Part shown: positions 824-39,175 of the stretch, piece after piece
Layout: each line of letters opens with the position of its first letter
Numbering within the stretch: the stretch's first letter is position 1
Assembly (NCBI GenBank): GCA_947586255.1
Contig: CANPXP010000003.1
Coordinates: 1-64,000, forward strand
Reading direction: 5' to 3'
Source: an uncultured Lachnospiraceae bacterium
GTDB lineage: Bacteria > Bacillota > Clostridia > Lachnospirales > Lachnospiraceae
DNA length: 64,000 nt
The notes under the pieces: model-generated
Told to the model about the DNA's origin: nothing
What the model saw: the letters and a program-made list of their open reading frames with translations, nothing else
The model's database searches: none
Program-made: the position numbers and the translations under genes

Positions 824-1393
824 TTATGATATAAATTTTACTACATCTTCCCTATTTACCGACTGCTTTCCCGCTGCCTTAGGATACCCCAGCGCAATCA
901 TATCCCACACGACATGATTTCCGGGGATATGCAATTCATCCATCTGTGCTTTCACAGCCGCCTCATCCTTTAAAGTCATAAGAATACCTGTCATCATTGA
1001 ACCAATTCCATAGGAATAAGCTGCCAGCACCATATTCTCCGCCGCACAGGATGCATCCTGACAGCCGTACGGATTTCTCAAATCATTCGATACCAGGATC
1101 AGGCATGCCGGATTTATGGGGCAACAAAAATCAAGACGCCTTTTCTCTGCGATTGCCGTAATCACTGCAAGAAGCGACTCTATCACAGCCCCCCCCCGAA
1201 CCACCGTAAACTTCCAGGTCTGCATATTGTGTCCGCTTGGCGCGTAATACCCCGCCTTTACGATTGCTTCCATTATTTCCTCCGGAATCTCTTCCTGTCG
1301 AAACGCAAATATATCCTTTCTGTTCATAATTGCCTGAACCATTGGCGTCATCGGCACGCCACTTTTATTCATATTTTCCGTAAGTTTCGTCAT
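824..1393 (-). CDS. Nitroreductase family protein (FMN-dependent), with a G9 tract
   Basis: This 189-residue protein is a nitroreductase-family flavoprotein. The N-terminal RKDIFAFRQEEIPEE and the APSGHNMQTWKFTVV block match the FMN-binding region of the family. It is a paralogue of the nitroreductase domain at the C-terminus of the upstream gene (residues about 505-681 there), so a tandem duplication is likely. A run of nine G (1189-1197) encodes Gly67-Gly68 with parts of Arg66 and Ala69; the fused paralogue has no such run. The gene is last in the 6196-to-824 operon, 19 bases after its neighbour. Family members reduce nitro compounds or oxidise carrier-bound intermediates; the operon suggests the second, by inference. 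Confidence 0.85.
   Translation of the reverse strand: MTKLTENMNKSGVPMTPMVQAIMNRKDIFAFRQEEIPEEIMEAIVKAGYYAPSGHNMQTWKFTVVRGGAVIESLLAVITAIAEKRRLDFCCPINPACLILVSNDLRNPYGCQDASCAAENMVLAAYSYGIGSMMTGILMTLKDEAAVKAQMDELHIPGNHVVWDMIALGYPKAAGKQSVNREDVVKFIS
1189..1197 (-). repeat. Poly-G tract (9 G) in the nitroreductase gene
   Basis: Nine consecutive G on the coding strand span codons 66-69 (CGG GGG GGG GCT). The length is in frame. A change of one base would truncate the protein in its first half. Confidence 0.9.
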
Positions 1394-1412
1394 AACATAT
1401 CCTTTCTGCCTG

Positions 1413-3458
1413 TCACAGCCATTCTACAACATCCGCGTTCTTTGCCAGCAGTACGCCTTCCGCTGTCGGATACCCCAGAGCGATTGTGCTCCATACGATG
1501 TGGGTCTCCGGAATATGCAACTCATCGAGCATCGTTTTGGCCGGTTCAGCATCCCTCAGCTTCATCAGCGCGTTGATCCACACGGAACCCAACCCATAAG
1601 AATGCGCCGCCAGCATGATATTCTCCGCTGCACAGGAAGCATCCTGACAGCCGTCTTGATTCCTTTTGTCATTGGAAACCAGAATCAGGCAGACCGGATT
1701 CTCGAATCCGTAAAAATAAACCCCGTTCTCGCGCGCCGTCTTCTCCATGACATCCCTGATATGCGCAATCGTTTCCGGCGTCTGCACGACAGTAAACTTC
1801 CAGGTCTGCATATTATGTCCGCTCGGCGCATGATACCCTGCTTTGATTAGTACTTCCAAAATTTCCTCCGGGATCTGCTGGTCCGTAAATTTACGAATAC
1901 TTCTCCTGGTCAGGATTGTCTGCACGACCGGATTAATCAAGGATTCCCGGCCGTGGGAATCCCACAATGAACGCAGCGAACGGCGATCTACCTTCTTCAT
2001 ACTGTTTCTCGGCAGCTCCGCCACCTGGATAAATTCCTGCGGCACCTTATATTTCTCCAGCCGCGTGTGCAGATACTCCTTAAAATCCTCCAGTCTGAAT
2101 CCCTCTCCGCTGACCACATAATACATCGCCGGAATAAAACCGAGTACTTTCTCCGGATCGGGCACGCCGATACACGCACATTCAGCGATACCCGCATATT
2201 CTCCCGCGATGTTCTCCACTTCTACCGGCGATACCTTTTCGCCGCCGACATTGATGATATCGTCCGCCCGGCCCAGCATATAGACAAAACCGTCCGCATC
2301 CGTATATACCATATCTCCGGTGATAAGCCATCCGTCTCTTATACTCTGGGCCGTCTCCTCCGGGCGGTGCCAGTATCCGGACATTTGCATATTCCCCTTC
2401 AGCGCCATGCGTCCGGGCTGCGCCCTGTCGCCTGCCGTTTCCGTGCCGTCCTCCGCCAGCGTACGTATCTGAATCCCATCCAACGGTTTCCCGATCGCCG
2501 CTTCGCGCCCCGGCACCGTCAGAGCTTCTCTCACATTCAAAAACAGCGCACCACCTGTTTCGGTGCTGCCCCAGGTGTTGTGAATTTCTACAGTCGGGAG
2601 TTCCCTGCACAAACGTTTTCGCTGCTCTACAGACAAGGAACCAGCCGATACCTCTATATATCTGAATCTGCCCATAATTTTCGCAAATTGTTCCTGCATC
2701 TGCCTCGAGATCGTCTCCACAGATGCCGGTACAATAGCAATCGCTGTACAGCCATAGCGTTCCATATTGTTCTCAATCTCTTTGGCAAACGTAAAGCCGT
2801 TCTGCAGTACCACAGTTGCCCCCAATGCGAGCGCCGCTCTGAATACTCGCAGCGCAAAAGAATGATTCAGCGGAAGCGGAAGAAGCACAATGTCATTACT
2901 TTCCATCGGTGTACCGTCAACAGTATTCTTCCAGATATGGTATACCGCTCTATAGGTCAACATTGCGCCTTTCGGTTTCCCTGTTGTCCCGGATGTATAG
3001 ATAATTTCTGCGATCTCCTCCTCTTTGGGCATCACATATTTTGCATCATCATTTCCGTGGCCCGGATCACATTCCACCCTCTGAAAAAGATTCTTTGCAG
3101 AACATGTCCTGCACTTTTCCTCCACCACCTGATTCCGCCTGTCTGTCAGAAATAAAACCGCTTCTGTATCCTCATATAAAAATATTACATTTTCCGGCGT
3201 GGCATTTTTGTCCACAAAGACAACCACCGCCCCTATATACTGAATTCCCAGATAAAGCGCAGCCATCTCCGGCTTAGATACTGCAGACAGCATCACCCTG
3301 TCTCCCCGCTTTATTCCCATCCCGCGTAATGCGACAGCGATACCGCGTATTCTGCCGCGCAGTTCTCCATAAGACACCGCTGTATCCTTGAAGCAGACCG
3401 CCGGCTTGTCCGGTATCGTCTCACCATAAGACAAAACTTGTTCCACTAAAGTTTTCAT
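1413..3458 (-). CDS. AMP-dependent acyl/amino-acid ligase fused to a nitroreductase domain
   Basis: The protein has 681 residues. Residues about 1-500 form an adenylating enzyme: P-loop YTSGTTGKPKGAML, HNTWGSTETGG, the GDMVYTDADGFVYMLGRADD block and a C-terminal lysine in NSMKKVDRRSL. Residues about 505-681 form a complete nitroreductase domain (RRSIRKF, APSGHNMQTWKF). The ATG at 3458 is preferred because AGGGAG lies seven bases upstream; the ATG nine codons earlier has no such site. An acyl carrier protein gene lies just upstream, so the ligase probably loads it as DltA loads DltC. The fused flavin domain may then oxidise the tethered group; this is inference and the substrate is unknown. 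Confidence 0.85.
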   Translation of the reverse strand: MKTLVEQVLSYGETIPDKPAVCFKDTAVSYGELRGRIRGIAVALRGMGIKRGDRVMLSAVSKPEMAALYLGIQYIGAVVVFVDKNATPENVIFLYEDTEAVLFLTDRRNQVVEEKCRTCSAKNLFQRVECDPGHGNDDAKYVMPKEEEIAEIIYTSGTTGKPKGAMLTYRAVYHIWKNTVDGTPMESNDIVLLPLPLNHSFALRVFRAALALGATVVLQNGFTFAKEIENNMERYGCTAIAIVPASVETISRQMQEQFAKIMGRFRYIEVSAGSLSVEQRKRLCRELPTVEIHNTWGSTETGGALFLNVREALTVPGREAAIGKPLDGIQIRTLAEDGTETAGDRAQPGRMALKGNMQMSGYWHRPEETAQSIRDGWLITGDMVYTDADGFVYMLGRADDIINVGGEKVSPVEVENIAGEYAGIAECACIGVPDPEKVLGFIPAMYYVVSGEGFRLEDFKEYLHTRLEKYKVPQEFIQVAELPRNSMKKVDRRSLRSLWDSHGRESLINPVVQTILTRRSIRKFTDQQIPEEILEVLIKAGYHAPSGHNMQTWKFTVVQTPETIAHIRDVMEKTARENGVYFYGFENPVCLILVSNDKRNQDGCQDASCAAENIMLAAHSYGLGSVWINALMKLRDAEPAKTMLDELHIPETHIVWSTIALGYPTAEGVLLAKNADVVEWL

Positions 3459-3503
3459 TATATTCTCCCTTTTATCCAGACCCATAGGCGATCACAATCA
3501 TTC

Positions 3504-3731
3504 CTATGCCTGCAACCTTTCCACCATTTTGGCAAGGCCGGAAATGGAATTGAAATTTTCCTCAATAATCTCCTCATAGGGAATCGTAATGCCAAATTCC
3601 ATTGTCAGCGTGGCAATGATTCCCGTAATCGTCAGGGAATCCAATATACCATCATCCACCAGCTCATTAGAAGCGGTAAAATCCACCTCTGGAAACTCCT
3701 CCGACAGCACCTTCAAAACTCTTTCTTCCAT
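3504..3731 (-). CDS. Acyl carrier protein (DltC-like)
   Basis: This 75-residue acidic protein has the carrier-protein motif DGILDSLTITG; Ser32 is the expected phosphopantetheine attachment site. It lies between the MBOAT acyltransferase (upstream) and the adenylating enzyme (downstream), the set of parts that DltB, DltC and DltA provide in D-alanylation of teichoic acid. The acyl group is unknown. Being encoded beside a dedicated ligase argues against a role in general fatty acid synthesis. Confidence 0.88.
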   Translation of the reverse strand: MEERVLKVLSEEFPEVDFTASNELVDDGILDSLTITGIIATLTMEFGITIPYEEIIEENFNSISGLAKMVERLQA

Positions 3732-3770
3732 AACTTATCCCTCCCTGTTTCTTCAATAAAAATTTTTTAT

Positions 3771-5351
3771 TTAAAATTGACCGTAAACAAAATTAACCGC
3801 ATTGTATCCCGGTCCATAGATACCGAAAATGATAATGGCAAAAATGGCGGCATAATAAATCGCCCAACGAATCACGATGTTTTTTCGCGCAATACCTTCC
3901 CGCACAGACCCCCGCTCCTGCCAGATACTGATCTGCCTGATCAAGAGCAGCGAAAGCACCGCCAGACATAAATTCCGATAATTCAAACCCAGGGTATATA
4001 ATGTTCCATCCCAGAGGATCCATGGATTAAAGCTCTTAAAGATCTGGCGGATCATCTGCCATGTCGCATGAAGCGAGCCCGGAACCGTAATCAGCCTGCC
4101 TACCGTAAACACGCAAAAGGTCCTGACCATCTGAAAATACGAATATCCTCTTGACTCCATATTGATATGCAGCAGTTCAGCCAACTTTTTATATTTAGCC
4201 GCAAAAAGAGTGGCACTGGTAATAATCGTCCCATAGTACAGACCCCAGGCCACATAATTCCAACCCGTTCCGTGCCACACGCCTGTCAGCACCCACACAG
4301 TCATCAGCGGAATAATCGTATTCAGATTTTTAGCTACCTTCCTGCCAAATTTCTCCTTCACTTTCGAAATTAATTTGATCAGCCAGGGCGAAGTCGCCGT
4401 CGGCATATACACATAATCTTTGAACCAAGTCCCCAGCGTCATGTGCCACCTTCGCCAAAATTCCGCCGTACTCTTTGAAAAAAATGGATGGTTAAAATTC
4501 TCATCCAACTCTATGCCAAAAATCTGCGATGTTCCTCTTACGATATCCACGCATCCCGAAAAATCTGCATATATCTGAAAGGAACAGAAAATCAAAGTGA
4601 TAACCAAAACCAGCCCCTCATAGGCGCCTATGTCTCCCAGAACATGCCCCGTAAAAATTGCCAGCCTGTCCGCAATAACCATTTTCTTGAAATAACCGTA
4701 CAGCATAAGCTGTATACCAAAGCACACCCTGTGATAATCAAACCGATTTTCTCTCGTAAACTGCGGCAAGAGTTTCTGATATCTGGCGATCGGCCCCTGC
4801 ACAATCTGCGGAAAATAAAATACGCACAGCGCAAACTGAAAATAATTGGATATATACTTTGTCTTTCTCCAATAAACGTCCAATAAATATCCCAACGAGG
4901 AAAAAGTATAATAAGATACACCCAGTGGAACTATCACTTCCCAAGTAATCCTGTCACCCCTTGTCACCCTTGCGATACAGTCCAGCAATGATCCGAAGAA
5001 CTTACAGTATCCTAAAAATCCCACTACGATAACAATTGTCGGAAGCAACAAATAATTCCGGCACTTTCTTTTACATGCTGCCATATATGCTGCCTTTTCT
5101 TTTCCGGACAGCAGCTTGTCCTGCGCCTCCTTTTCCGCCCGATCATATAACCCGGTCATCCCCTTCGAGGAGAGCCAGATGAGCAGTGAACTGACCAAAA
5201 CAAACGGAAGCGCTTTTATGCCTCCTGCTAAAATATAAAACACGATACTGGAAATCAAAAGAATTCCCCACCGCATTTTAGATGGATACACATAATAGAG
5301 CGCCACACACAGTATCAAAAATATAATATAGTACAGTGAATTATATTGCAT
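3771..5351 (-). CDS. MBOAT family membrane O-acyltransferase (DltB/AlgI-like)
   Basis: The 526-residue protein has many hydrophobic segments and the MBOAT signature: a conserved histidine in LTGVWHGTGWNYVAWG, plus QIVQGPIARY and YADFSGCVDIVRG. The ATG at 5351 follows GGGAGAGAG and is preferred to the ATG 15 bases earlier. MBOAT proteins of this type move an acyl group from a carrier across the membrane onto a cell-surface polymer. The carrier protein and ligase genes follow directly, so it is probably the transferase of a surface-glycan acylation system. Confidence 0.9.
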   Translation of the reverse strand: MQYNSLYYIIFLILCVALYYVYPSKMRWGILLISSIVFYILAGGIKALPFVLVSSLLIWLSSKGMTGLYDRAEKEAQDKLLSGKEKAAYMAACKRKCRNYLLLPTIVIVVGFLGYCKFFGSLLDCIARVTRGDRITWEVIVPLGVSYYTFSSLGYLLDVYWRKTKYISNYFQFALCVFYFPQIVQGPIARYQKLLPQFTRENRFDYHRVCFGIQLMLYGYFKKMVIADRLAIFTGHVLGDIGAYEGLVLVITLIFCSFQIYADFSGCVDIVRGTSQIFGIELDENFNHPFFSKSTAEFWRRWHMTLGTWFKDYVYMPTATSPWLIKLISKVKEKFGRKVAKNLNTIIPLMTVWVLTGVWHGTGWNYVAWGLYYGTIITSATLFAAKYKKLAELLHINMESRGYSYFQMVRTFCVFTVGRLITVPGSLHATWQMIRQIFKSFNPWILWDGTLYTLGLNYRNLCLAVLSLLLIRQISIWQERGSVREGIARKNIVIRWAIYYAAIFAIIIFGIYGPGYNAVNFVYGQF

Positions 5352-5386
5352 TTTTCTCTCTCCCAACCATCAATCATAACAGCCTG

Positions 5387-6196
5387 TCAGTTCCTGTAAA
5401 TATAGGCATCTATTGTATCCACCACTTTCGCCCCAAGCTGCATATGCAGATTAATCGACGCCACATTAGCGCTTGAAATATCTCCAACATACCTCCGGTA
5501 CTTATTTTCAAAAGCGCTTTCCGAGCCAAGCTGCAACATGCTCTTATAGAGCGGCACCGCTGCCATTTTCCCTTTCATCCCCGGAAGCGTCGCTCCCAAT
5601 ATGTTCTCAAAACAGTTCTTGTCTCTGTTCTCCCTGATTACGGTAAAACCAAGAAGTTCCTGCCGGTGAACAGCCTTTATCACCGGATAGTTTTTTTCGT
5701 TAAATTCCTTCAAATAAGACGCTATAACATGATTGGCAACGTTCTGGTCAAAGCGCTGCTCCAGATGAAATCTCCGATCGGTTGTATAGGCCTCACATGC
5801 CAGCCGATACATTTCTTCTGTATACTCATCCGATAAGCTTATCGAAATCTCCCCCCCCCTTACAGGAATATCGATATCATTCAAAAAGCTGCCGGAATTA
5901 TCCTTCAAGAAAATTTCAACCCGCAAAATTCTGTCGTGAAAACGAAAGCCGTTCTCCAATAACTCTGCTATCCTGATATCATCCGTACTTTTCACCTGCT
6001 GTATATTGTACTTCTCCGTACAGTCCTGCAAGTATGCATCACAGTTGGCAATCACGCATTTTTCACCTTCAAACTGAATGTATCTGACAGAACCGCTATT
6101 TTCTTTTCTCTTTAAAATCAGGCAGGCGTCAATGGGAAGTCTCTTTTTCTCAGCTTCCTTCAGCGTCGTGTTGTGCACGGTTATGTACTCCTCCAT
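5387..6196 (-). CDS. GNAT family N-acyltransferase (WecD-like), with a G9 tract
   Basis: This 269-residue protein has a GNAT-like C-terminal half. The RRFHLEQRFDQNVANHVIAS stretch resembles the RF-x-A region of WecD-type sugar N-acetyltransferases, and SSANVASINLHMQLGAKVV matches the last GNAT motif (N-x-A-x-x-L-x-x-x-LGA). The N-terminal half is not recognised. Nine G at 5851-5859 encode RGGE at codons 113-116, so the gene is intact now but open to slippage. It starts the operon that continues with the MBOAT gene 35 bases on. The acceptor is unknown, probably an amino-sugar. Confidence 0.75.
   Translation of the reverse strand: MEEYITVHNTTLKEAEKKRLPIDACLILKRKENSGSVRYIQFEGEKCVIANCDAYLQDCTEKYNIQQVKSTDDIRIAELLENGFRFHDRILRVEIFLKDNSGSFLNDIDIPVRGGEISISLSDEYTEEMYRLACEAYTTDRRFHLEQRFDQNVANHVIASYLKEFNEKNYPVIKAVHRQELLGFTVIRENRDKNCFENILGATLPGMKGKMAAVPLYKSMLQLGSESAFENKYRRYVGDISSANVASINLHMQLGAKVVDTIDAYIYRN
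5851..5859 (-). repeat. Poly-G tract (9 G) in the GNAT gene
   Basis: The codons read AGG GGG GGG GAG, in frame at nine G. The tract lies ahead of the GNAT core, so a one-base slip would remove the catalytic half. Confidence 0.9.
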
Positions 6197-6262
6197 GATA
6201 ATCTCCAGCCCCGCTTCCTTTATAAGTCTTTTTTATTGCGGGCGACCTCACTTTTCACTAAT

Positions 6263-6312
6263 AAAACTCCTGATATAAAGTCATCACTTTCACACTTTAT
6301 ATCAGGAGTTTT
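6263..6312 (-). terminator. Perfect 19-bp stem-loop at the 3' end of Rpn element 2
   Basis: The arms AAAACTCCTGATATAAAGT (6263-6281) and their exact reverse complement (6294-6312) flank a 12-base loop. It lies about 50 bases beyond the Rpn stop and ends in TTTT on the minus strand, so it may act as a terminator. The same arms occur at 20946-20992, and their inner 13 bases recur at the far end of the Rpn units (7790-7802), so it may also be an element end. Confidence 0.75.
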
Positions 6313-6359
6313 GATTTCATGTTGTATTAATGTTCGTTTGTGAGATTGATCCGCTAAAT

Positions 6360-7433
6360 CTACCAGTATTTCTGCGCTGTTGCAAGCGCATCGTCCCCGC
6401 TCATACCACACTGGGCAGCCAACTGTTCTGCTGCCATCTCTACGGTGCCCTGCATTCCTTTTACCGTTTGCACGATTCCGCGGATGCGACCTTCTTTTCT
6501 TCCTTCTTTTCTTCCTTCTTTTCTTCCTTTTTTTATGCCTTCTTTCAGTCCCTCCGCCTTAGCTTCCCGCCTCGCCGCCTGCACATCATATCCCTGAAAG
6601 TTCGCAAATAACTCGCCCACCTTGCGCTCCTTCACCTGATCCGCAAACCGCCGCGCCTCTTCTCCCGGCACGTTCAGCCTGCCCAACAGGATTTCCACTA
6701 CCTGACCTATAATTCCCAGCAGATACTCAGGCGTCTGCGCCGTCACCCTCTCCAGGTATTCCTGCGGCACCTCCCTCTGCAGAACAGCGAAGTCCGCCGT
6801 CTTCTGCAGGCGGTTCAGCATCATCACGATGGAGAGTTCGTCTTCCTTCTCCATCAGCATCCGGTTGCTGTACCGGTTCAGCTGCACCATAAGGCAGCGA
6901 TAATCGGGAATGTAATCACCCAGCACATCGCTTAAGTACACCCGCTCATGGAGCCTTGTCGCCGCTGTCCACTGCCCTGTTCCCTCATAGTACACGATGG
7001 GCAGAACCGGTGGATAGCGGAATCCCTTCGTCTTGCTGACGCCTTCCTGCTTTCTCTCCCGCTCCTTTTCGTAGTCTTCCCAGATGAACACTATATATCT
7101 GAGTATCTGCATGACTACATTATAATCCACATCCGACTTATGTTCAATAAGCGAAACAAGATAAAACGGTATTTCACCATTGTCTTTATCCTTCAGCCGG
7201 ATGCGTTTCACCACGTCTGAGTTCCGCTCTTCCGTGAACATGTGGACGAAGCGTTCCGTCTCGTCCTCGATGTCTTCCGGCTGTACGTCCTTTAGGAGCG
7301 GGATATCCACGTAGCCCCGCAGGAACTGCGCGCATAAGATTGGATCCTCGAAAATGATCTTCGCGGAGCTGTCGCGAATCTGTGTGTTCTGCTGCTCCTG
7401 TGCACTTTTCGTTTCATTTGTCTTCTGTGACAT
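6360..7433 (-). CDS. Rpn family recombination-promoting nuclease / putative transposase, copy 2
   Basis: The protein has 357 residues. The N-terminal two thirds match the Rpn/Transposase_31 family, with the PD-(D/E)XK-like core around EIPFYLVSLIEHKSDVD and the conserved LPIVYYEG. The C-terminus is a charged tail of GRKE repeats from 12-bp DNA repeats. The ATG at 7433 is chosen because AGAGAGGTG stands just upstream; a longer frame to 7532 exists but lacks a good site. The unit, with its leader and hairpin, lies between the acylation operon and the glycan genes. Family members are linked to RecA-independent recombination; activity here is untested. Confidence 0.85.
   Translation of the reverse strand: MSQKTNETKSAQEQQNTQIRDSSAKIIFEDPILCAQFLRGYVDIPLLKDVQPEDIEDETERFVHMFTEERNSDVVKRIRLKDKDNGEIPFYLVSLIEHKSDVDYNVVMQILRYIVFIWEDYEKERERKQEGVSKTKGFRYPPVLPIVYYEGTGQWTAATRLHERVYLSDVLGDYIPDYRCLMVQLNRYSNRMLMEKEDELSIVMMLNRLQKTADFAVLQREVPQEYLERVTAQTPEYLLGIIGQVVEILLGRLNVPGEEARRFADQVKERKVGELFANFQGYDVQAARREAKAEGLKEGIKKGRKEGRKEGRKEGRIRGIVQTVKGMQGTVEMAAEQLAAQCGMSGDDALATAQKYW
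6491..6526 (-). repeat. 12-bp tandem repeat (3 exact copies) in the Rpn C-terminal tail
   Basis: The plus-strand unit CTTCTTTTCTTC occurs three times, followed by a decayed fourth copy. It encodes repeated GRKE. The unit is a multiple of three bases, so copy-number change alters tail length without breaking the frame. Copies at 21101-22183 have a different tail. Confidence 0.85.
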
Positions 7434-7883
7434 CTGCACCTCTCTTTCCGCATGGGAAAAACGAAATGCCAACTGTCCAGAAGATTTGCTTACACGGTCA
7501 CTTCCTGAAAAAAACGCCTGCTGCCGCAACACTTACGCCCATCCCACGCTCTGTTATACTGTTGTCTGTTTCTTTCGTTGGGATACCTGCTCATATTTGA
7601 TGTGGAGATAAAAAACATCTCCTGAGATGATTTTCATCTCCCGAGCCCGATTCCTGTGACGAAACGGCTAGATATGTATGAAAGATCATATCCACCGTAT
7701 TTCCGGCAGCAAGACCACTGCCGATAGCAACACTATAACAGATACATGCAGGGATTGCAAGCGCTTTATGGTACAAAAATCATTTTATTCCTGATATAAA
7801 GTATGAAATTGTCAAGGTTCTCTTGTGTCAATATGCATCTATATCTACAATTATCTTGTAATAACCTCCACCTTTTCTTACGC
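7434..7883. repeat. Non-coding leader of Rpn copy 2
   Basis: This 450-base stretch has no supported gene. Its outer part (about 7699-7819) is shared with the leaders of copies 1 and 3 and contains CCTGATATAAAGT at 7790-7802. The middle (about 7595-7690) differs from copy 1 and contains small inverted repeats such as CATCTCCTGAGATG. A promoter for the Rpn gene is expected here but was not pinned down. Confidence 0.55.
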
Positions 7884-9992: not shown

Positions 9993-10004
9993 TGCACCTC
10001 TCAT

Positions 10005-11411: not shown

Positions 11412-11491
11412 TTCTGTCGTCTCCCTGCTCTATTGTTTTGACTGCCATCAATTCACATAAATTATTTATATCCCTCCCCCTGCTCTGTCTC

Positions 11492-12541: not shown

Positions 12542-12569
12542 AAATACAACTCCTTTTCCTCCCAGACCA

Positions 12570-27325: not shown

Positions 27326-27326
27326 A

Positions 27327-28430: not shown

Positions 28431-28435
28431 TATAT

Positions 28436-29365: not shown

Positions 29366-29382
29366 ATTTTATCCTCTCTCCA

Positions 29383-30279: not shown

Positions 30280-30295
30280 TTTTACATCCTCCTCT

Positions 30296-31819
30296 TCAAA
30301 TATTCAACAATGTACACATATATTTTAATATATCTTCTTTTTTAACCGGTTCCTTATTTCCAGTTATATTGGATGCTAATGCCCCACCTATATTTCCCAT
30401 AAACGCGGCCACGTCAATTGGCGCTTCCACAATACACATCATTCCAAACAAAGAATAAAAGGCATCTCCTGCCCCTATGGTGTCAGACACTTCTAATACA
30501 AATGCAGGGCATTCTTTTATAATGTTGTTCTCAATATAAAGGCATCCTCTTGATCCTCGTGTCAAACACCCACTGCCATGTAATCTATTCGAAAGTTTTT
30601 TTAAACTTTCTTCTTGATTTTGAGAATAGTCGGAATAAGCTAAATGCAGTTCTTTTTCATCAAGTGTGAAGAAGTCTGCTTTATCATATTTTGTTATCAA
30701 ATTCAATCCATAATTAGATGAATTTGTTTGACAATTTAATACTATTTTTTTTGCACGCAATTCTACAGTACTTTTCACTTCCTTATCAATTAATCCATGC
30801 CCAAAATCGCATAAGAATACTGCATCATAATCGTCAATAATATTCACTAATTCCTGTATAAATTTTCTCTTTTCTTCTTTATCTATCGCCATACTGTCAG
30901 ACAAGTTGTTAATAGCAAAAATTTTATCCAGCAGTTTTCTCTTTTCATCAGCTTCTACATAACGTGTTTTTATGATTGTTTGATATTTGTCTGTACTTAT
31001 TATATCTAGGTTAAATTCGCACTTATCCTCCATTATCTTGTGTATTTCTGGTTCATTTCCCATAATAGATAAGAGCGTTACATTGTCAGAAAATTCTGCC
31101 ACTTCTCGCGCTATTGCCACGCTGCCGCCTAAATATTTTTCATTGCTCACAAATCTAGCCGAATAACCAATGTTTTTTGACATTAACCCTTGCAATTTAC
31201 AAAATATGTAGTCATCAATAATAACATCTCCAACTATAAGTATTTTCTTATCCCTAAATTTTTCTATGTATTCCAACATTTCATTACGCCCATGTTGCCT
31301 GCTAAACTTGATTAAGAAATTTTTCATCTCGTCAGAGAAAACTGGCATAACATTATTTATTAACTTAGTAGAGCTAAAAACTTCGCCTCCTGTATAACGC
31401 ACCTCTCCACCGTATTTTTTTACCAATGCAACTTCACTATTGATCATTCCAGTAAGATCATTTGTCTCGTCTTTATACTCTTCTCCTTTTACATATATAT
31501 CTGGTTGAACTATAGGTACAATATCGTCTACTGTATAAGATTCTGATAAAAGCACATAATCTATTACTTTCAATGATTCCAAAAATTTTATTCTTTGCAT
31601 ATTGTCAAAATAGGGACGTCCTGGTCCTTTTCGCACATATTGCGCCGCTGTTATGGACACTACCAGTACATCACCATAACTTTTAGCCTTCTCAAAATGC
31701 TCTACATGCCCTACATGCACTAGGTCAAATACGCCATGGCATAAAACCACTTTCTTACCACATTCTCTTATATTTTGACGTATTTCTTTAAAATCTTCTT
31801 TTTTTACAAATTCTCCCAT
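30296..31819 (-). CDS. Bifunctional nucleotidyltransferase-sugar kinase (HldE-like, domains in reverse order)
   Basis: The protein has 507 residues. Residues about 20-155 are a cytidylyltransferase-type domain: CHGVFDLVHVGHVEHFEKAK has the HxGH site, and GGEVFSSTKLINN the SSTxxI site. Residues about 185-500 are a PfkB/ribokinase-type kinase with DTIGAGDAFYSLFG as the anion-hole motif. E. coli HldE has these two activities (heptose-7-phosphate kinase, heptose-1-phosphate adenylyltransferase) in the opposite order. GmhA and GmhB genes at 40-41 kb would complete the pathway to an activated heptose. Substrate is inferred from these neighbours; a related sugar is possible. Confidence 0.82.
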   Translation of the reverse strand: MGEFVKKEDFKEIRQNIRECGKKVVLCHGVFDLVHVGHVEHFEKAKSYGDVLVVSITAAQYVRKGPGRPYFDNMQRIKFLESLKVIDYVLLSESYTVDDIVPIVQPDIYVKGEEYKDETNDLTGMINSEVALVKKYGGEVRYTGGEVFSSTKLINNVMPVFSDEMKNFLIKFSRQHGRNEMLEYIEKFRDKKILIVGDVIIDDYIFCKLQGLMSKNIGYSARFVSNEKYLGGSVAIAREVAEFSDNVTLLSIMGNEPEIHKIMEDKCEFNLDIISTDKYQTIIKTRYVEADEKRKLLDKIFAINNLSDSMAIDKEEKRKFIQELVNIIDDYDAVFLCDFGHGLIDKEVKSTVELRAKKIVLNCQTNSSNYGLNLITKYDKADFFTLDEKELHLAYSDYSQNQEESLKKLSNRLHGSGCLTRGSRGCLYIENNIIKECPAFVLEVSDTIGAGDAFYSLFGMMCIVEAPIDVAAFMGNIGGALASNITGNKEPVKKEDILKYMCTLLNI

Positions 31820-31830
31820 GTTTTAATGCC

Positions 31831-32847
31831 TTAAATAGCCTTTCGTTTTTCATAGTATTCCGGGATTGTAGCATCAATATAATTATCCCTTTTTATCCAT
31901 TGACGCACTTTATTATTTAGCCCAAATTGTAAAGTGAGATATAACATTCCTTTATTTATATAAAAATTTTTTATATCATTAATATTTTGTCTTTCCAATT
32001 TATATCTACTTTTAAGACAATTCAATGCTACATTTTTTAATACTTTTATATATTCTTCTTTACTTTCTATGCTTCTCATTTTCTCATATCCATAACTGAT
32101 GCCCGATCTATAAGATACCTTCTTGACATAGTTAAACGTTAACCTTTCTTTAGTAACTACATGTTTTACAGATGCCGCCGGATAAAACATTGCTTTCCAT
32201 CTTTTTTTCTTAATATAAGTCGTAACATAACTCTCTCCATCGCCTCTATATCTTAATAAATTATCAGGCATTCCATCAGGATGAAAACCTCTGATCTCAC
32301 ATAATACTCTTTTTCTAATTGCAAAATTGCATCCAAATATAGCACCTGCATCAATACGCCTAACTTTATCGCCAATTATTATGGCGCTATATATCCCTAA
32401 CCTTTTCAATTTTTCCTTTCTATCATATATCCATAAATCTTTAACCCACTTAGGTGGCCTTACCTCAAACCATGGATAATTATTTCCGCCAATTAAAACA
32501 GTCTCTTCATCTTCAAATCCCAAACAAATTGCCTCCAACCATGTTGGTAAAGCAATAATGTCGTCATCTGCATACACTAAAATATCAGCTTTGCTCTCTA
32601 AATAACCTCGATTACGACCTATATGTAATCCTGGTCTGTCATCGTATATATATATAAGATTATTGTGCTTGCGCTGATACATCATGCATACATTCTTTGT
32701 ATGGTCCGACGAACCATTGTCGATAACTATTATCTCAAACAATTCTTCACTTAATGTCTGACGAGCGATTGATTCCAATGTTTGCTTCAATAATTCTGCT
32801 CTATTTAATGTGGGTATAATGACCGAAATTTTTGTATCAGTTCCCAT
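31831..32847 (-). CDS. GT2 family glycosyltransferase
   Basis: The 338-residue GT-A enzyme has SVIIPTLNRAELLKQTL, IIVIDNGSSDHTKNV and ILVYADDDIIALPTWLE with the metal-binding DDD. The C-terminal part is helical and basic, as in transferases that act on lipid-linked or membrane-near acceptors. GAGGAA stands before the ATG. The gene start overlaps the 3' end of the broken methyltransferase frame by 43 bases, so translation of the two is probably coupled when that gene is on. Confidence 0.87.
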   Translation of the reverse strand: MGTDTKISVIIPTLNRAELLKQTLESIARQTLSEELFEIIVIDNGSSDHTKNVCMMYQRKHNNLIYIYDDRPGLHIGRNRGYLESKADILVYADDDIIALPTWLEAICLGFEDEETVLIGGNNYPWFEVRPPKWVKDLWIYDRKEKLKRLGIYSAIIIGDKVRRIDAGAIFGCNFAIRKRVLCEIRGFHPDGMPDNLLRYRGDGESYVTTYIKKKRWKAMFYPAASVKHVVTKERLTFNYVKKVSYRSGISYGYEKMRSIESKEEYIKVLKNVALNCLKSRYKLERQNINDIKNFYINKGMLYLTLQFGLNNKVRQWIKRDNYIDATIPEYYEKRKAI

Positions 32848-33592
32848 ATTTTTTCCTCTAACAGTTTTTTAATAGTTCTGTTATTTTTTAATTCTGCTAT
32901 TTGATTCTCATATATACGTATCTTCTTTTCATACATATCAGGGTTCACTATATCGCCTATATATTTATTGTTTAATAATTTATCCACTCCACTTCCCGCT
33001 TTAACAAACAACACTATATTATTTCTGTACCACACCGGAATCTTTCGGTCATTCCATATATCCGCCCTAATTGCATCTTTAATAACAAAATCACTCTTTT
33101 TAAAATGTGATATCCAGTACGATAATCTTTGCTCATTTACATGACCATTCCCGCCCTGTTCTGGTACTGCTGCCGAAAACAAAACTAAATCACCTAAATT
33201 ACATAGTTTATGTACAAAATCACTGGCGTACTTTTTATTGATATGTTCGGCCACCTCCAAACATATTACTAAATCGAATTTTTTATCATCATTAGCTTTT
33301 ATAAGTTTTAAAATATCAAATGTCTCCAAATTATCCGCCCAAAAATCTCTTGATGATATCATCAAATATTTTTGAGGAACATATTCACCATCCACACCAA
33401 TAGTCCTTATGCCCCCCCCTTATATTTTTGAGCCTCATTAAGCCATGTCCCAACACCACAACCTATATCAACTATACTGTCTGGGGAAATACCAGTTTCA
33501 TCAAATACTATCTTTAAAATAGTTCTGGCCGCATATTCAGAATTTCTATTTCTGTTTTTGTAAAAATTATCATCATAGAACTTATTATCCAT
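32805..33592 (-). pseudogene. Class I methyltransferase split by an 8-G tract (probably phase-off rather than dead)
   Basis: Two frames hold one protein. The first, from 33592, reads MDNKFYDDNFYKNRNRN and reaches the SAM loop SIVDIGCGVGTWLNEAQKYK, then stops at the G tract. The second, ending at 32805, continues with GVDGEYVPQKYLMI, FDLVICLEVAEHINKKYA and LVLFSAAVPEQGGNGHVNE. Adding one G to the eight G at 33412-33419 joins them as KGGGIRTIGVDGEY, a natural methyltransferase of about 262 residues. All seven other tracts in the window have nine G. A sequencing error at the homopolymer is the main alternative. Confidence 0.82.
33412..33419 (-). repeat. Poly-G tract (8 G), out-of-frame state
   Basis: The minus strand reads AAG GGG GGG GCA TAA, a stop straight after the tract. 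Nine G would give AAG GGG GGG GGC ATA AGG and open the frame to the end of the methyltransferase. Confidence 0.88.
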
Positions 33593-33618
33593 ATTAATCA
33601 CTTTTACCTTGTTTTTTA

Positions 33619-34692
33619 CTATATACAACTTTCTTGCAACAATTTTATTACTTCTTGTATATTTTCATTTGGCTGATCCGGTCCACCTGGCATATAGAGC
33701 AAATGCTTTTCAAAATAATTTGCATTATTATAAGTTGTCCTCTTTTCAAAATAATCTGCATTGTGCAAACAAGCTCCAGCAGGTCTAACCTGTATCTCTT
33801 TATCTTCAAGAAATTTACGTAGCCCAACTGAATCACTACATAAAATATCTGGTGTATATACCACCTCATTTTCTTTAGTTGGGATCATACTAATATTTTT
33901 TAATCCTGCCAAAGACGTTTTATACATCTGATAGTGTTCTTTGCTCTTTTTTACTTTTTCATCTATTTTACTGAACTGCACTAGACCTATAGATGCCAGT
34001 ATATCGGTATATTTCAAGTTAAATCCCGCAAGCTGATACAGATTACTTTCAAAAATGTTATCCATACCCTGCATTTTTAATTTCTTCATGCGGTTATACA
34101 ATTCGTCATCATCCGTTGTTACAAATCCTCCCTGCGCAGTAGTCATAATTTTTGTCACTGCGAACGAATAGCATGCAATATCCGCATCACATCCGGCATA
34201 ATTACCTACCGTACCTGACGCAAACGCCTGACACGCATCATCTACTACATATATGCCGCTCCCCTTTAACAAATCTTTCAATTTTCTAGTATCCGCGTGC
34301 CTTCCGTTTAAGTGCACCGGAATGATTGCTTTTGTTCTAGATGTTATAAGATCCATAACTTTATCTACATTTATAACCGGGACTTCTTCGCATACATCTG
34401 CCAAAACAACGTCCGCCCCCAACAATTTAGGTGCATGTCCCGTAGCTATAAAAGTAAAGTCCGGAATAATAACCTCATCTCCTGGTTTAATCCCGATACC
34501 CATCATTGCCAATAGAACAGCAGAACTTCCATTTGGTACACAAACAGCATATTTTCTTCCAAGAAATTTTGCCAATTTCTCTTCGAGTTCCTTGACTTTT
34601 ACGCCTTCGCTAAGATTACGCTCCATAATACTATCATAAGCTGCTTGCGCTTCTTTTTCTCCTAATGATATATTCCATGTATTTATTCTCAT
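33619..34692 (-). CDS. DegT/DnrJ/EryC1/StrS family sugar aminotransferase
   Basis: The 357-residue PLP enzyme has EKLAKFLGRKYAVCVPNGSSAVLLAM, VDDACQAFAS for the cofactor-binding aspartate and CYSFAVTKIMTTAQGGF, where the lysine is the expected Schiff-base residue. Such enzymes convert keto-sugar nucleotides to amino-sugars. ATG 34692 is chosen because the family starts close to its first helix; an upstream frame to 34764 lacks support. It probably supplies an amino-sugar that could feed the GNAT or PIG-L enzymes; this is inference. Confidence 0.87.
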   Translation of the reverse strand: MRINTWNISLGEKEAQAAYDSIMERNLSEGVKVKELEEKLAKFLGRKYAVCVPNGSSAVLLAMMGIGIKPGDEVIIPDFTFIATGHAPKLLGADVVLADVCEEVPVINVDKVMDLITSRTKAIIPVHLNGRHADTRKLKDLLKGSGIYVVDDACQAFASGTVGNYAGCDADIACYSFAVTKIMTTAQGGFVTTDDDELYNRMKKLKMQGMDNIFESNLYQLAGFNLKYTDILASIGLVQFSKIDEKVKKSKEHYQMYKTSLAGLKNISMIPTKENEVVYTPDILCSDSVGLRKFLEDKEIQVRPAGACLHNADYFEKRTTYNNANYFEKHLLYMPGGPDQPNENIQEVIKLLQESCI

Positions 34693-34744
34693 CAAAATCA
34701 CTTGCCCTTTCTTTATTTCTCCAACGCAAATACAATTTTTTGCA

Positions 34745-35770
34745 TTATTTATTTTTTGATTCATATATGTATGAGTAATAGCTTACATCTGACATATCCG
34801 TCATGATTTTGTGTCTCAGTTCAAAAACCCCCGTTTCCATAATTAATCTGTGCCCTATTGGTTCAACATAAAAAATATAAACTTTTCTTGGACATGTTTT
34901 AATACTGCCACATATATGATCAAGAACCTTTTTCATAATTTCTAACGAAAATGGGTTAAAAAGAAAAAACCAATTATATTGATCTAATTCCTTCTCTAAT
35001 TGTGACGCATCCGTGCAATAACAGAGTACTTTGTTCATACTCGCCTTATTTGTTCCATCATTATCTACTTCTATAAAATTAATATCTAACAATTCCAAAT
35101 TTTTCTTCATCGTATTGAATATTTCTTTTGTATACTCCACTGCACCTATCTTTCTAAATCCCATATTATATAACGCAATTACGCCACTGCCTTTTCCGCA
35201 CCCAATATCCAACACAGCATCCTTTTGAACATCTAATTCATACTTTTGAAATCCTTCTAAAAATATTCTAAAATCTGTTGGAACATATCCATGAGCATGC
35301 TCTCCCTGTGTAAATGCTCTTTTAACTGTGGTTAATAAATCGATTTGATATGTATATTCTAGCCAATCATAATAAGTAATCTCATAATTTCCCGAACCTT
35401 TTCTTCTCGCCTCCCCACCTTCATATATCTGATTCCACAAGTCAACTATCTGTTTCTTTTCATACAGAAGATTCTGCCATTTTTCTCCAGTATCATCGAA
35501 TTCATCCACAATGTTGATTGCCGTGGTATTTATAATCACATCATCTTCATCATATATATAGTATAATGACCACAAGTGTGGAATTGTCACCATTGGCGAC
35601 AACTCCCATCTATCAATCACCGCTTTTACTTTTTTACTGTAATATCTTTGTAAAAACCATCTGACAAAATCCCCACCACGACTGCAACCATATATAATTA
35701 TTTTTTTATTAAGATATGGTTTCAATTTCTCCCCAAGTATTTCACAAAAAATCTCATATTGAGTATGCAT
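34745..35770 (-). CDS. Class I methyltransferase with N-terminal Rossmann-like module
   Basis: The protein has 341 residues from the ATG at 35770, preceded by GAGG; an ATG six codons upstream overlaps the previous gene. The N-terminal module is somewhat divergent (KKIIIYGCSRGGDFVRWFL, AVIDRWE, DDVIINTTAINIV). The C-terminal half is a class I methyltransferase with AVLDIGCGKGSGVIALYNMG and IGAVEYTKEIFNTMKKNL. It has no G tract. The substrate is unknown. Confidence 0.8.
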   Translation of the reverse strand: MHTQYEIFCEILGEKLKPYLNKKIIIYGCSRGGDFVRWFLQRYYSKKVKAVIDRWELSPMVTIPHLWSLYYIYDEDDVIINTTAINIVDEFDDTGEKWQNLLYEKKQIVDLWNQIYEGGEARRKGSGNYEITYYDWLEYTYQIDLLTTVKRAFTQGEHAHGYVPTDFRIFLEGFQKYELDVQKDAVLDIGCGKGSGVIALYNMGFRKIGAVEYTKEIFNTMKKNLELLDINFIEVDNDGTNKASMNKVLCYCTDASQLEKELDQYNWFFLFNPFSLEIMKKVLDHICGSIKTCPRKVYIFYVEPIGHRLIMETGVFELRHKIMTDMSDVSYYSYIYESKNK

Positions 35771-35784
35771 ATTTTCATCCTCAT

Positions 35785-36855
35785 TCATATAAAATTAATA
35801 TGCTTTTTATCCATAGTAACCAGATAATCCAGCAATTGATTTCTCTCTTCAAAAACACATCTAAAATTACATTCTTCTTTTGGTTTCATACTCTGAAACT
35901 TTTTTGTCGTTTCATCGGAAAACCATAAGTTTTTAAAAGATTGTTTTTCCAAATTTCCAATAATTCCTTGCTTTGTATAAGCTCTTTGATGGCAATAATA
36001 CACATTACAATCAGCACCAATCACTGTAAATATTTCTTTTATATAACATTTTTCACATTTTTTGATGAATTCTTTATCAAAGCTTTCATCGTTTGTATAC
36101 TTATCTATGATACTGAATTTCCCATTTTCAAAATCCATTTTAGCATTCGCGATCTGCTCTTCTACAGATTCTTTAATTTCCATATGATATTCCGGCATCA
36201 TGCCTTTCACAGTTAAAGGGGCAAATTTTACATTATTAACTCCAATTTCAGACAATATGCTACACATTTCATAGATATCTCGATAATTATCTTTTGTTAC
36301 CACGCAATTAACACCAAGTACACAATTATCATCTTTCTCTTTTGAGAATTTCTCCATATTGTCTAAAACCGCGGAATATGTTTTTACACCTCTTATTCTT
36401 TCATACATCTCGCTATTAACAGAATCAAAAGAAACTCTCACCCATTTTGCATTATGCAACGCCTCTCTTTCCTTTTCACCCAGCGCTTGTCCATTTGTGA
36501 TCATTGCATAATCTATTCCACACTGATTTACCAACTTCAATGTCTCACAAATATGGCTATAACATAATGGCTCTCCGCCTCCGCTAAACGTAATCGCTTT
36601 CGTCCCTATATCCGAAAGGTCGTGAATGATTTCCTGCATTTTTACCCATGGTATTGATTCTCTTCTGTCTACTTTTCTATTCTCTATTACCGCATCATTA
36701 GCATATGCACAATACCAGCAATTTTGATTGCATACATTTGTTGGTTTAATTCTTACATATAACGGTGCTGTTCGTTCATTTTGAAGGATTGCCTTCAGCT
36801 TATCCGGATGACATAAAATTTTATAATCACTATATGTACTGCTTTTCTGTTCCAT
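35785..36855 (-). CDS. Radical SAM/SPASM domain protein
   Basis: The 356-residue protein has PTNVCNQNCWYCAYAN, whose CxxxCxxC holds the iron-sulfur cluster, and ITFSGGGEPLCY (GGEP). The C-terminal SPASM-like region has CEKCYIKEIFTVIGADCNVYYC, the GNL turn and CNFRC for extra clusters. Related proteins modify peptides or sugars, for example as dehydrogenases or epimerases. It differs from the radical SAM protein at 28436 and has no G tract. It follows the glycosyltransferase gene at 36876 by 20 bases. Confidence 0.85.
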   Translation of the reverse strand: MEQKSSTYSDYKILCHPDKLKAILQNERTAPLYVRIKPTNVCNQNCWYCAYANDAVIENRKVDRRESIPWVKMQEIIHDLSDIGTKAITFSGGGEPLCYSHICETLKLVNQCGIDYAMITNGQALGEKEREALHNAKWVRVSFDSVNSEMYERIRGVKTYSAVLDNMEKFSKEKDDNCVLGVNCVVTKDNYRDIYEMCSILSEIGVNNVKFAPLTVKGMMPEYHMEIKESVEEQIANAKMDFENGKFSIIDKYTNDESFDKEFIKKCEKCYIKEIFTVIGADCNVYYCHQRAYTKQGIIGNLEKQSFKNLWFSDETTKKFQSMKPKEECNFRCVFEERNQLLDYLVTMDKKHINFI

Positions 36856-36875
36856 ATTACCTACCCTTACTAATA

Positions 36876-38105
36876 CTAAAGCTGATGATAGAATTTGATT
36901 AGTCTGTCAATTTGGTTTTCTATCGCCAATATTTCCCGCGCCCTTTTTGCTTTTTCTTTATTGATTTCTTTGTTTTTCTCCAACCATTCTAACTTCTCTG
37001 GAAGTTCTTCCAGAGAACACGGTATCGCTGCTCCATATCGCGCTAAATATCTGCCAAACATTTCATTCTTTCTGCCATATAAGGCCGGAATCCCAGCATC
37101 GACATAATCAAAATACTTATTTGTAGCATAATATCTGGCTTTAGATTTATAATCATAAACATACCCAAACATCTTTACGTATTCATCTGTTTTTGATTGG
37201 AACTCAACACAGTCTATACCATAGTCCATATGGCTTTCATATTGAATCAGTTTTCGCGGAGACATAGGATTTTTAATCTTAACAAATTTATTCTTTTTTT
37301 CTAAATCCAAAAACTTATAGTAAGCTGCATCACATTTCCTAGAAGGCACAATGACAAAATATCCCTTACTCCGTTCCAGAACGGAGGCCATATAACTAAA
37401 ACCATCCCATTCTATTTTTTCCAGAACGTCTTGCGATCTTGATGATAACAATCTACCGCCATATATAATTTTTAAATTTTTCCTACCTTTATCATTACTT
37501 TGATCTTCTTGAAGGTAATTCCAATTCCAACAATAATCAAAAAACAAAATTCTCTTTGCAAAAGAATATCCGTACTTATGTTTTAAATGTTGTGTTTCAA
37601 ACGATCTGCAGCATATGCCGTCTGCATTTTCAAAGCAAAACTTCTCTCTTCTTTCACACGCACGATTTTTATATCTTGAAAAATCTTTAAAAACGTCATA
37701 TTGATCATATACAATCTTGCCAATATTTTTTTTATTTTTAATGAGATTTTCCGTCCTCACTTTCACATCAGCTTCTGAAAAAATGTGATATACCAATGGT
37801 TTAACAAATAAACAGTTCATGTATAACTTTATTTCCGACTTAAATGGAATAATCTTGTCAAAGTACTTTTTATTGTCTTTTGCTAAACTTTCTTTACTAT
37901 CATCATTGAGAAACAAAACAACTCTATAATGTTTCTTTTTAAGAGCATAACCAATTTTAATAACACGCGGTTTAACATAATCAACAACAAAAACTATTGT
38001 GTTGTCTCTTTGTTTTCTCCACGGCCTAATAAAAAGTAAAACCTTTATCATGATTAAATATATTAATAACTTTAATTTTTCTATAATTATATTCATATAA
38101 CGCAT
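36876..38105 (-). CDS. Probable GT-B glycosyltransferase
   Basis: The 409-residue protein begins with a hydrophobic stretch (KLLIYLIMIKVLLFI), then a Rossmann-like half (NTIVFVVDYVKPRVIKIGYA, VYHIFSEADVK) and a second half with IIYGGRLLSSRS and YYATNKYFDYVDAGIPALYG. This resembles family 4 or related GT-B transferases, but the paired-glutamate donor motif is not clear. It may sit at the membrane through its N-terminus. The start could be the ATG three codons further in. Assignment rests on overall pattern. Confidence 0.65.
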   Translation of the reverse strand: MRYMNIIIEKLKLLIYLIMIKVLLFIRPWRKQRDNTIVFVVDYVKPRVIKIGYALKKKHYRVVLFLNDDSKESLAKDNKKYFDKIIPFKSEIKLYMNCLFVKPLVYHIFSEADVKVRTENLIKNKKNIGKIVYDQYDVFKDFSRYKNRACERREKFCFENADGICCRSFETQHLKHKYGYSFAKRILFFDYCWNWNYLQEDQSNDKGRKNLKIIYGGRLLSSRSQDVLEKIEWDGFSYMASVLERSKGYFVIVPSRKCDAAYYKFLDLEKKNKFVKIKNPMSPRKLIQYESHMDYGIDCVEFQSKTDEYVKMFGYVYDYKSKARYYATNKYFDYVDAGIPALYGRKNEMFGRYLARYGAAIPCSLEELPEKLEWLEKNKEINKEKAKRAREILAIENQIDRLIKFYHQL

Positions 38106-38143
38106 TTGGAAATATTAAATTATTGTCGTTTTTCAATCAGCTT

Positions 38144-39175
38144 TTAAACGTGTTTTATTTTTAAATTCATATCTACATCGAATGTATATAATAATTCATC
38201 CATTCTAAACTGAGTCTTTTTGCATACAAACTCCTTCTGTATACGTTGTGGCAAAAATATCCCGCACATATTGTTATTTGTCACATACACATTTTTAAAA
38301 TCTTCACCCAATACATCCTTTACTGCATATATAACTTCCGAATTATATCTACTATTTTTTTTAAAATCATGCCATATTACTATGGAATCCTTATTACGAA
38401 TAGAAAATATATTTTTAGTATCCCAATATACACCATCATAACTATGGTTTCCATCAATAAAAAATAACGTTATATCACTCGGTAAAATAGAATAATCAAA
38501 TTGTTTCGAATCCTCTACAAACCACTGTTTAATCTTATCACTGTATATCAATCTGTTTGAAAAATCTGGTATTTCTAATTTTTTGCACCAATTCCGCATA
38601 CCATACTTTGAATCTGGCGGAGCCGTTATGCTGTACAAGCATTCACAGGTATCCGTCAATATATTAATGCTTTCTCCTATATATGTGCCTATTTCTAAAT
38701 ATTTCCTACATTGATACTTTTCTGCTATATGCTTAATAAAAGCATAATCCAGTACTCCTGAACCTCCAGGCATGAAAGTTAATTCTTTCAATTTTATTAT
38801 CCTATTCTCACTTAATAAAAGCCCTAAATCGATTGTTCTATTATTCAATTCTTCAAATATATCATGTATATCATGACAACTATGCATTTTCGAATCGTCA
38901 TCACATTGTGCGCTATATATCAATATATTGTCTTGCCTATATTTATAGGCCACTTTCAGAATTTCGTCTTTATATATACTCGCAATAATCAACTTTTCCT
39001 TTTTGCTTTTTTGCATAATATCAGGAGAATATACTATTTTACCGTCTATACTCTCCCCCCCCCACTTATTTGGATCGCTATCCACAAAAAATTCTATCTC
39101 ATACACTTCTTTTAATGCATAATATGCACTTTTCCCAGTATTGCCCGCTCCCCAAATTATTGCTTTTTCTTTCAT
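38144..39175 (-). CDS. Class I methyltransferase (Methyltransf_24-like) with N-terminal Rossmann-like module, G9 tract
   Basis: The protein has 343 residues. Residues 1-95 are the recurrent module (KAIIWGAGNTGKSAYYAL, FFVDSDPNKWG, KLIIASIYKDEIL). The C-terminal part has KYLEIGTYIGESINIL, ITLFFIDGNHSYDGVY and SIVIWHDF, as in Methyltransf_24 and TylF-related enzymes. Nine G at 39055-39063 encode WGGE at codons 38-41, inside the module and in frame. It is the first gene of the AT-rich run; the epimerase gene upstream has clearly higher GC. Confidence 0.83.
   Translation of the reverse strand: MKEKAIIWGAGNTGKSAYYALKEVYEIEFFVDSDPNKWGGESIDGKIVYSPDIMQKSKKEKLIIASIYKDEILKVAYKYRQDNILIYSAQCDDDSKMHSCHDIHDIFEELNNRTIDLGLLLSENRIIKLKELTFMPGGSGVLDYAFIKHIAEKYQCRKYLEIGTYIGESINILTDTCECLYSITAPPDSKYGMRNWCKKLEIPDFSNRLIYSDKIKQWFVEDSKQFDYSILPSDITLFFIDGNHSYDGVYWDTKNIFSIRNKDSIVIWHDFKKNSRYNSEVIYAVKDVLGEDFKNVYVTNNNMCGIFLPQRIQKEFVCKKTQFRMDELLYTFDVDMNLKIKHV
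39055..39063 (-). repeat. Poly-G tract (9 G) in the methyltransferase gene at 38144
   Basis: Codons TGG GGG GGG GAG, in frame at nine G, 112 bases after the start codon. Confidence 0.9.

What the first reader, a model, noticed from the sequence alone, without database searches (positions are those of the whole stretch)
1189..39063. Eight poly-G tracts inside surface-glycan genes: a candidate phase-variation system in a Clostridium-type genome
Runs of nine G lie within coding frames at 1189, 5851, 25637, 28370, 29223, 30232 and 39055, and a run of eight G at 33412, always on the coding strand. Most sit in AT-rich DNA where such runs should be rare by chance. All nine-G runs keep their frame; the eight-G run breaks its frame. 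Intragenic poly-G switching is well known in Campylobacter and Helicobacter, whereas phase variation described in Clostridia mostly uses DNA inversion.
Basis: partly seen in the sequence, partly recalled or inferred. Interest (0 to 1): 0.9.

Follow-up and report, generated by a model that had tools for sequence, protein, structure and literature searches.

The report
Nine-G slip switches in gut Clostridia
An uncultured gut bacterium of the family Lachnospiraceae carries dozens of runs of exactly nine G in and around genes for its surface and secreted products, which probably act as random on/off switches like those of Campylobacter, although switching itself has not yet been seen.

Summary
It is far beyond chance: 7 G9 runs in the window against 0.33 in shuffles, yet 1 G6 and no G7 against 21 expected. 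The own genome has G6/G7/G8/G9/G10+ = 26/2/7/39/2. Four congeners share the sharp peak at nine (45-81 runs each); 393 of 397 sampled family genomes have 14 or fewer. Tracts lie in glycan genes, lipoproteins, a giant surface-type protein, the cleavage motif of Nif11-type peptide precursors, and promoter spacers, including a flagellin's. One split gene keeps its out-of-frame half under purifying selection in two species (dN/dS 0.12). MutS and MutL look intact. Best reading: a multi-locus poly-G phase-variation system in clostridial commensals, with tract length held near nine. No data here show length changing within a strain, so recoding at a fixed G9 remains a rival; and one other genus has as many G9 runs in housekeeping genes.

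The parts
1189..1197 (-). G9 tract in a nitroreductase-family gene (824-1393)
   Evidence: Pfam PF00881 E 5.6e-20
5851..5859 (-). G9 tract in a 269-aa gene of unassigned family (5387-6196)
   Evidence: no Pfam or NCBIfam match
25637..25645 (-). G9 tract between the PglD_N part and the methyltransferase part of one gene (25028-26152)
28370..28378 (-). G9 tract near the 5' end of a methyltransferase-like gene (27327-28463)
   Evidence: PF08242 below its curated cut-off
29223..29231 (-). G9 tract in a radical-SAM-like gene (28436-29365)
   Evidence: PF04055 below its curated cut-off
30232..30240 (-). G9 tract near the 5' end of a TylF-type methyltransferase gene (29383-30279)
   Evidence: PF05711 E 3.3e-19
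33412..33419 (-). G8 tract that splits a gene into two frames (pieces 33407-33628 and 32805-33395); methyltransferase-like by eye only
   Evidence: no Pfam match for the downstream piece, weak NCBIfam UbiG hit far below cut-off, none for the upstream piece
39055..39063 (-). G9 tract in a Methyltransf_24 gene (38144-39175); a congener has a G9 at the same place in a related gene
   Evidence: G005 L178:12017
824..40216 (-). the tract-bearing gene stretch: glycosyltransferases, Stealth, GT-D, FkbM and other methyltransferases, DegT aminotransferase, epimerase, MBOAT; 38.6% GC over 1-40300 against 57.3% beyond

Best explanation
The tracts are contingency loci. Slippage of the replication machinery at runs of nine G now and then changes their length by a unit. 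In coding tracts this shifts the reading frame of surface-glycan enzymes, lipoproteins, peptide precursors and surface-type proteins; in promoter tracts it changes the spacing of the two promoter boxes, as before one of three flagellin genes. Cells of one clone would then differ at random in their surface and secreted products. Shown: exact positions, strong excess at length nine, coding-strand bias, the kinds of gene hit, split genes with both halves open, purifying selection on one out-of-frame half, tracts inside promoter spacers, recurrence in congeners. Inferred: that length changes in DNA at a high rate, that slippage is the cause, and that biased gain and loss hold the modal length at nine whatever the frame.
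For: Excess at nine with a gap at 6-8 in the window and in own, G005, G010, G012, G014 genome-wide: G9 is 39 of 48, 81 of 95, 60 of 68, 45 of 50 and 63 of 81 runs of 8 or more. A/T runs decay normally. No run of 8 or more in 1.50 Mb around radA of 80 relatives and none of 7 or more in 80 kb around mutSL of five tract-rich genomes. G-strand coding in 96 of 102 single-strand calls. Tract genes: flagellin promoter, CotH, amidase, GH25, WbqC, solute-binding lipoprotein, transpeptidase, DUF6020/6056/6077, beta-helix protein; acyltransferases, CotH, methyltransferases, TupA in G005. Split gene L169:10534/L225:9132: out-of-frame half dN/dS 0.119 over 208 codons, upstream half 0.137, but 0.93 for the 56 codons that the upstream frame reads past the tract. 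Promoter spacers.
Against: No length variation within a strain or species was observed. 15 of 18 aligned cross- or within-genome tract pairs are G9 in both, even where both are split, which a stable tract would also give. MutS and MutL are present, unlike in Campylobacter (recalled). Genes hit also include regulators, chemotaxis and metabolic families, and enrichment of surface genes was not tested formally. G206, another genus, has 105 G9 runs, and 10 of 10 tract genes scanned there look like metabolic, repair or transport genes.
Confidence: 0.75

Rival explanations
1. Recoding at a stable tract: the DNA keeps nine G, and RNA polymerase or the ribosome slips on it, so split genes give a fixed share of full-length protein without any heritable switch.
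For: Length is nearly always nine, in and out of frame; the giant surface-type gene is split in the same way in own, G010 and G012, and the L169/L225 gene in G005 and G012, all at G9, with the out-of-frame half of the latter conserved.
Against: It does not explain G9 inside promoter spacers or in genes that are in frame at nine. Some paralogues and congeners have G8 or G10-14 instead.
Confidence: 0.12
2. A mutational habit without a switching role: G runs grow to about nine in these genomes and persist where they do little harm, so fast-evolving accessory genes simply show more of them.
For: G206 carries G9 runs in housekeeping genes such as RecJ, NAPRTase, aconitase and glycerol-3-phosphate dehydrogenase. 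G9 occurs irrespective of frame. Several tracts sit at naturally G-rich spots: lipobox CGGG, leader double glycine, sites just before start codons.
Against: Splits of genes whose halves stay open and, in one tested case, under purifying selection; the same sites kept in several species; G206 lies in another genus with many G6 runs (183 in 1.6 Mb), so it may be a separate case.
Confidence: 0.1
3. Assembly artefact: homopolymers are miscalled as nine in metagenome assemblies.
For: Nearly all near relatives listed are metagenome assemblies, and the own genome is an 85%-complete draft in 88 contigs; one of its two G10+ runs starts 29 bases into a contig.
Against: The seven window G9 runs all give open frames. 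Other congeners show runs of 10-14, so longer runs do assemble. Gaps at G7-G8 and normal A/T decay are not what miscalling would give.
Confidence: 0.03

Closest known systems
Poly-G/C contingency loci of Campylobacter jejuni
   Same: Dozens of G tracts in and before surface-glycan and flagellar-modification genes; PMC8437040 (passages) gives 29 poly-G/C tracts in NCTC11168, 23 of them in coding regions.
   Different: Different class of bacteria; MutS and MutL present here; far sharper length (about 80-90% exactly nine). For contrast PMC4965091 (passages) counts major peaks at G8 257, G9 214, G10 431, G11 77, G12 9 for 11 C. jejuni loci in single colonies, a different kind of count. Switching is measured there, not here.
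Poly-G/C promoter-spacer switches such as Neisseria porA (recalled)
   Same: G run between the -35 and -10 boxes, where a unit change alters spacing.
   Different: Here seven tracts of three promoter groups have 19-20 nt spacers, and one lies in a sigma-28-type flagellin promoter.
DNA-inversion switches of Clostridia, e.g. C. difficile flagellar switch (PMC8890394, search listing and abstract start only)
   Same: Random surface heterogeneity in Clostridia, flagella included.
   Different: Inversion by a recombinase, not a repeat tract; not looked for here.
NHLM/Nif11-type RiPP clusters
   Same: Tandem Nif11-type precursors beside an NHLM HlyD and a peptidase-ABC exporter.
   Different: A G9 tract lies at the double-glycine motif and leaves several core peptides out of frame with their leaders. 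The two searches pairing phase variation with Nif11 (0 papers) or with bacteriocin, poly-G and precursor-peptide terms (10 of 13 listed) showed no such case by title.

Membership tests
Simple-sequence-repeat (poly-G) phase variation | Homopolymer tracts well above chance | tested here: met
   Window shuffles and genome-wide length counts
Simple-sequence-repeat (poly-G) phase variation | Tracts inside coding frames or promoters of variable surface genes | tested here: met
   Gene families and promoters; no formal enrichment test
Simple-sequence-repeat (poly-G) phase variation | On and off states both found among tract genes, off genes not decayed | tested here: met
   18 same-frame and 15 different-frame G9 tracts on the G strand, at least one of the 15 a likely gene junction; dN/dS 0.119 in an out-of-frame half
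Simple-sequence-repeat (poly-G) phase variation | Tract length differs between cells of one clone or strains of one species | not testable with these tools
   One assembly per species, no reads; a viral-contig search gave no near-identical copies
Simple-sequence-repeat (poly-G) phase variation | Expression follows tract length | not testable with these tools
   Needs culture or RNA
Campylobacter-type lack of MutS/MutL (typical there by recall, not defining) | mutS and mutL absent | tested here: not met
   MutS_I in 35 of 37 genus genomes, the two misses 67-68% complete; adjacent open MutS and MutL frames in five of five tract-rich genomes, one MutL with a one-residue variant of my motif
DNA-inversion phase variation | Inverted repeats flanking a switch plus a dedicated recombinase | not tested
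   A serine-recombinase domain lies at 44665-45285 beside a TnpB-like gene; inverted repeats were not searched
NHLM/Nif11 RiPP system (own contig C10) | NHLM exporter | tested here: met
   TIGR03796 1020.6 bits (cut-off 853.3), TIGR03794 266.6 (156.2)
NHLM/Nif11 RiPP system (own contig C10) | Nif11-type leader above cut-off | tested here: inconclusive
   Own leaders at most 30.2 bits against 32.3; two in G005 reach it only with their frame neighbours; Pfam Nif11 22.4 against 23.8

The most novel reading that the evidence does not exclude
Tract length is held at a species-wide set point of nine (10 or more in other species of the genus), whatever the frame, in cells with mismatch repair. Each gene's default state is then written in its frame relative to nine: some genes are default-on, others, such as a giant surface-type protein and peptide precursors, default-off in several species, and rare slips give the other state. 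One shared length thus sets dozens of bet-hedging switches with inherited defaults.
Probability: 0.35. Interest if true: 0.85.

Novelty: new variant of a known kind. Interest (0 to 1): 0.72.

Why it matters
If the tracts switch, this is a many-locus poly-G system in gut Clostridia that have mismatch repair, outside the groups where I know such systems (recalled: Campylobacter, Helicobacter, Neisseria, Treponema). Surface glycans, a flagellin, lipoproteins and a family of secreted peptides of commensals would vary at random within a clone, which bears on how commensals meet phages and host immunity. The shared length of nine at dozens of loci also makes a general question testable: what sets the equilibrium length of a repeat.

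Tried and rejected
Loss of mismatch repair as the cause: not supported. Chance or base composition: rejected. A trait of the whole family: rejected; 393 of 397 genomes have 14 or fewer G9 runs, and those with 20 or more are own, G206, G167 and G089. Among 24 genomes of other families of the order the most is 8. Depletion of G6 as a general rule: not upheld; it is low in own, G012, G014 and G019 but high in G206 and moderate in G010. Strain-level length variation through viral contigs: the G005 DNA-methyltransferase query found relatives of at most 55% identity (80 kept of a capped list of 600), so nothing could be compared. The frame-shift label was checked by eye: L158, L168:4106, L180 and L226 were dropped as unsupported; L173, L183 and L197 look like gene junctions. 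Promoter matches had no shuffle control; two of its nine flagged tracts have 17-nt spacers, one of them on the opposite strand inside a gene, and were set aside. The genus name could not be shown; the kinship labels are the tool's.
Full report
Observation. One search finds the eight runs exactly where stated. One search shows that each G9 lies in one open frame on the - strand and that the G8 at 33412 separates two frames. Pfam names the tract genes as nitroreductase, PglD_N plus methyltransferase, TylF and Methyltransf_24, with two hits below cut-off (methyltransferase, radical SAM) and one gene without a match. Around them lie glycosyltransferases, Stealth, GT-D, FkbM, DegT, an epimerase and MBOAT. 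Positions 1-40300 have 38.6% GC, the rest 57.3%.

Chance. Dinucleotide shuffles give a falling series (G6 16.6, G7 4.6, G8 1.4, G9 0.33); the window has 1, 0, 1 and 7. In 293 kb of own sequence (the window plus 20 stretches chosen because they hold tracts, so the count at nine is inflated) G/C runs of length 4 to 9 number 927, 137, 2, 0, 2 and 35, while A/T runs fall smoothly to 1 at nine. The unbiased genome-wide counts are G6 26, G7 2, G8 7, G9 39, G10+ 2.

Relatives. RadA relatives are, by their titles, mostly uncultured Lachnospiraceae (80 kept of 257); titles name deer and goat, and 'Lapin' suggests rabbit; the nearest are 91-92% identical. In 36 congeners the G9 count runs from 0 to 81, and 8 of 36 have 20 or more. 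G005, G010, G012 and G014 share the peak at nine. In six other congeners 35 tracts picked because they were 10 or longer, with one more genome's single tract, measured 10 to 14. In 397 family genomes four have 20 or more.

Frame. Of 153 distinct tracts in the fetched stretches (own 37 of 48, G005 88, and 28 from G010, G012 and G014), a codon model coding on the G strand, 6 on the C strand, 5 mixed, 46 unclear; several clear window genes fall in 'unclear' because the island is AT-rich. By long open frames, 33 G-strand G9 tracts pass the thresholds: 18 same frame, 15 different. The 15 include three orthologues of one gene and two of another, and at least one likely gene junction (L183). Two G8 and two G10 tracts are also of different frame, two of these four (L173, L197) likely junctions; the C strand gives 10 and 9, largely shadows of G-strand genes. 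So nine is found in and out of frame.

Selection on a split gene. G005 L169:10534 and G012 L225:9132 are split alike. The shifted frame after the tract has dN/dS 0.119 over 208 codons, close to 0.137 upstream, while the 56 codons that the upstream frame reads past the tract have 0.93. A giant beta-helix gene is split alike in own, G010 and G012, with 0.59-0.60 after the tract, which is weaker evidence.

Other seats. Seven tracts of three promoter groups lie between TTGACA- and TATAAT-like boxes with 19-20 nt spacers. One DUF4854 lipoprotein-like gene has both a promoter tract and a tract after the lipobox cysteine in own, G005 and G012. Own contig C1 has three tandem flagellin genes, the middle one confirmed by Pfam, the others alike in sequence, the last cut by the contig end; all have a sigma-28-type promoter (consensus recalled), with a pure G9 in the middle one and GGGAGGGGG in the others at the same length. 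Four Nif11-type precursors on own contig C10 carry G9 at the double-glycine motif; three cores are out of frame with their leaders, one is in frame, and a fifth paralogue has no tract. NHLM exporter genes follow. G005 has a like cluster, with an in-frame copy too. A DNA-methyltransferase gene of G005 also has a tract.

Repair. MutS_I is found in 35 of 37 genus genomes; MutS and MutL frames stand side by side and unbroken in five tract-rich genomes.

Against the simple reading. G206, of another genus, has 105 G9 runs. Ten tract genes from 42 kb of it were scanned; they are RecJ, NAPRTase, aconitase, glycerol-3-phosphate dehydrogenase, transporters and other metabolic genes. So an excess of G9 can exist without a surface bias. 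In G005 too the 62 proteins scanned match 69 families, 25 shown, among them EAL, chemotaxis and Mur ligase besides glycan and surface families.

Literature. The ten searches that ran (open-access full texts, six of the listings capped) listed no title on poly-G phase variation in Lachnospiraceae; PMC6437147, returned for the family name, concerns C. jejuni tracts (passages). PMC2831843 (passages) reports excess of poly(A) and poly(T) up to 7 in coding genes. In the passages seen of the 2025 review PMC11868660, Clostridia appear through C. difficile promoter inversion and signalling.

Verdict. The tracts are real and strongly non-random, and are most simply a phase-variation system of known mechanism in a new group of hosts, with an unusually fixed length. 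Switching remains to be shown.

Noticed in passing
window 43088-45285 (-): A TnpB-like gene (NCBIfam guided_TnpB below cut-off, Pfam Cas12f1-like TNB above) beside a serine-recombinase gene, an IS607-like pair, at the edge of the low-GC stretch.
   Followed up: no
window 6360-7532 and 21101-22243 (-): Two YhgA-like putative transposase genes (PF04754) inside the glycan stretch.
   Followed up: no
L151 3827-8717 (own contig C1): Three tandem flagellin genes whose promoters differ in whether the G-rich spacer is a pure G9 or broken by one A.
   Followed up: partly
L168 4106 and 4280; L199 2133 and 2303; L219 2009 and 2185: One lipoprotein-like gene has a promoter tract and a lipobox tract in three species; the tract sits at different places in the spacer but the spacer stays 19 nt.
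   Followed up: partly
L188 2246-3915 (G005 contig C11): Six G9 tracts within 1.7 kb, several in short frames with a repeated motif (GICPT..GGGN), near a PAPS-reductase-like gene split by a further G9 and an adenine methyltransferase gene with another.
   Followed up: partly
L265-L267 (G206, another genus): 105 exact G9 runs in 1.6 Mb held, in housekeeping genes where sampled; cause unknown.
   Followed up: partly
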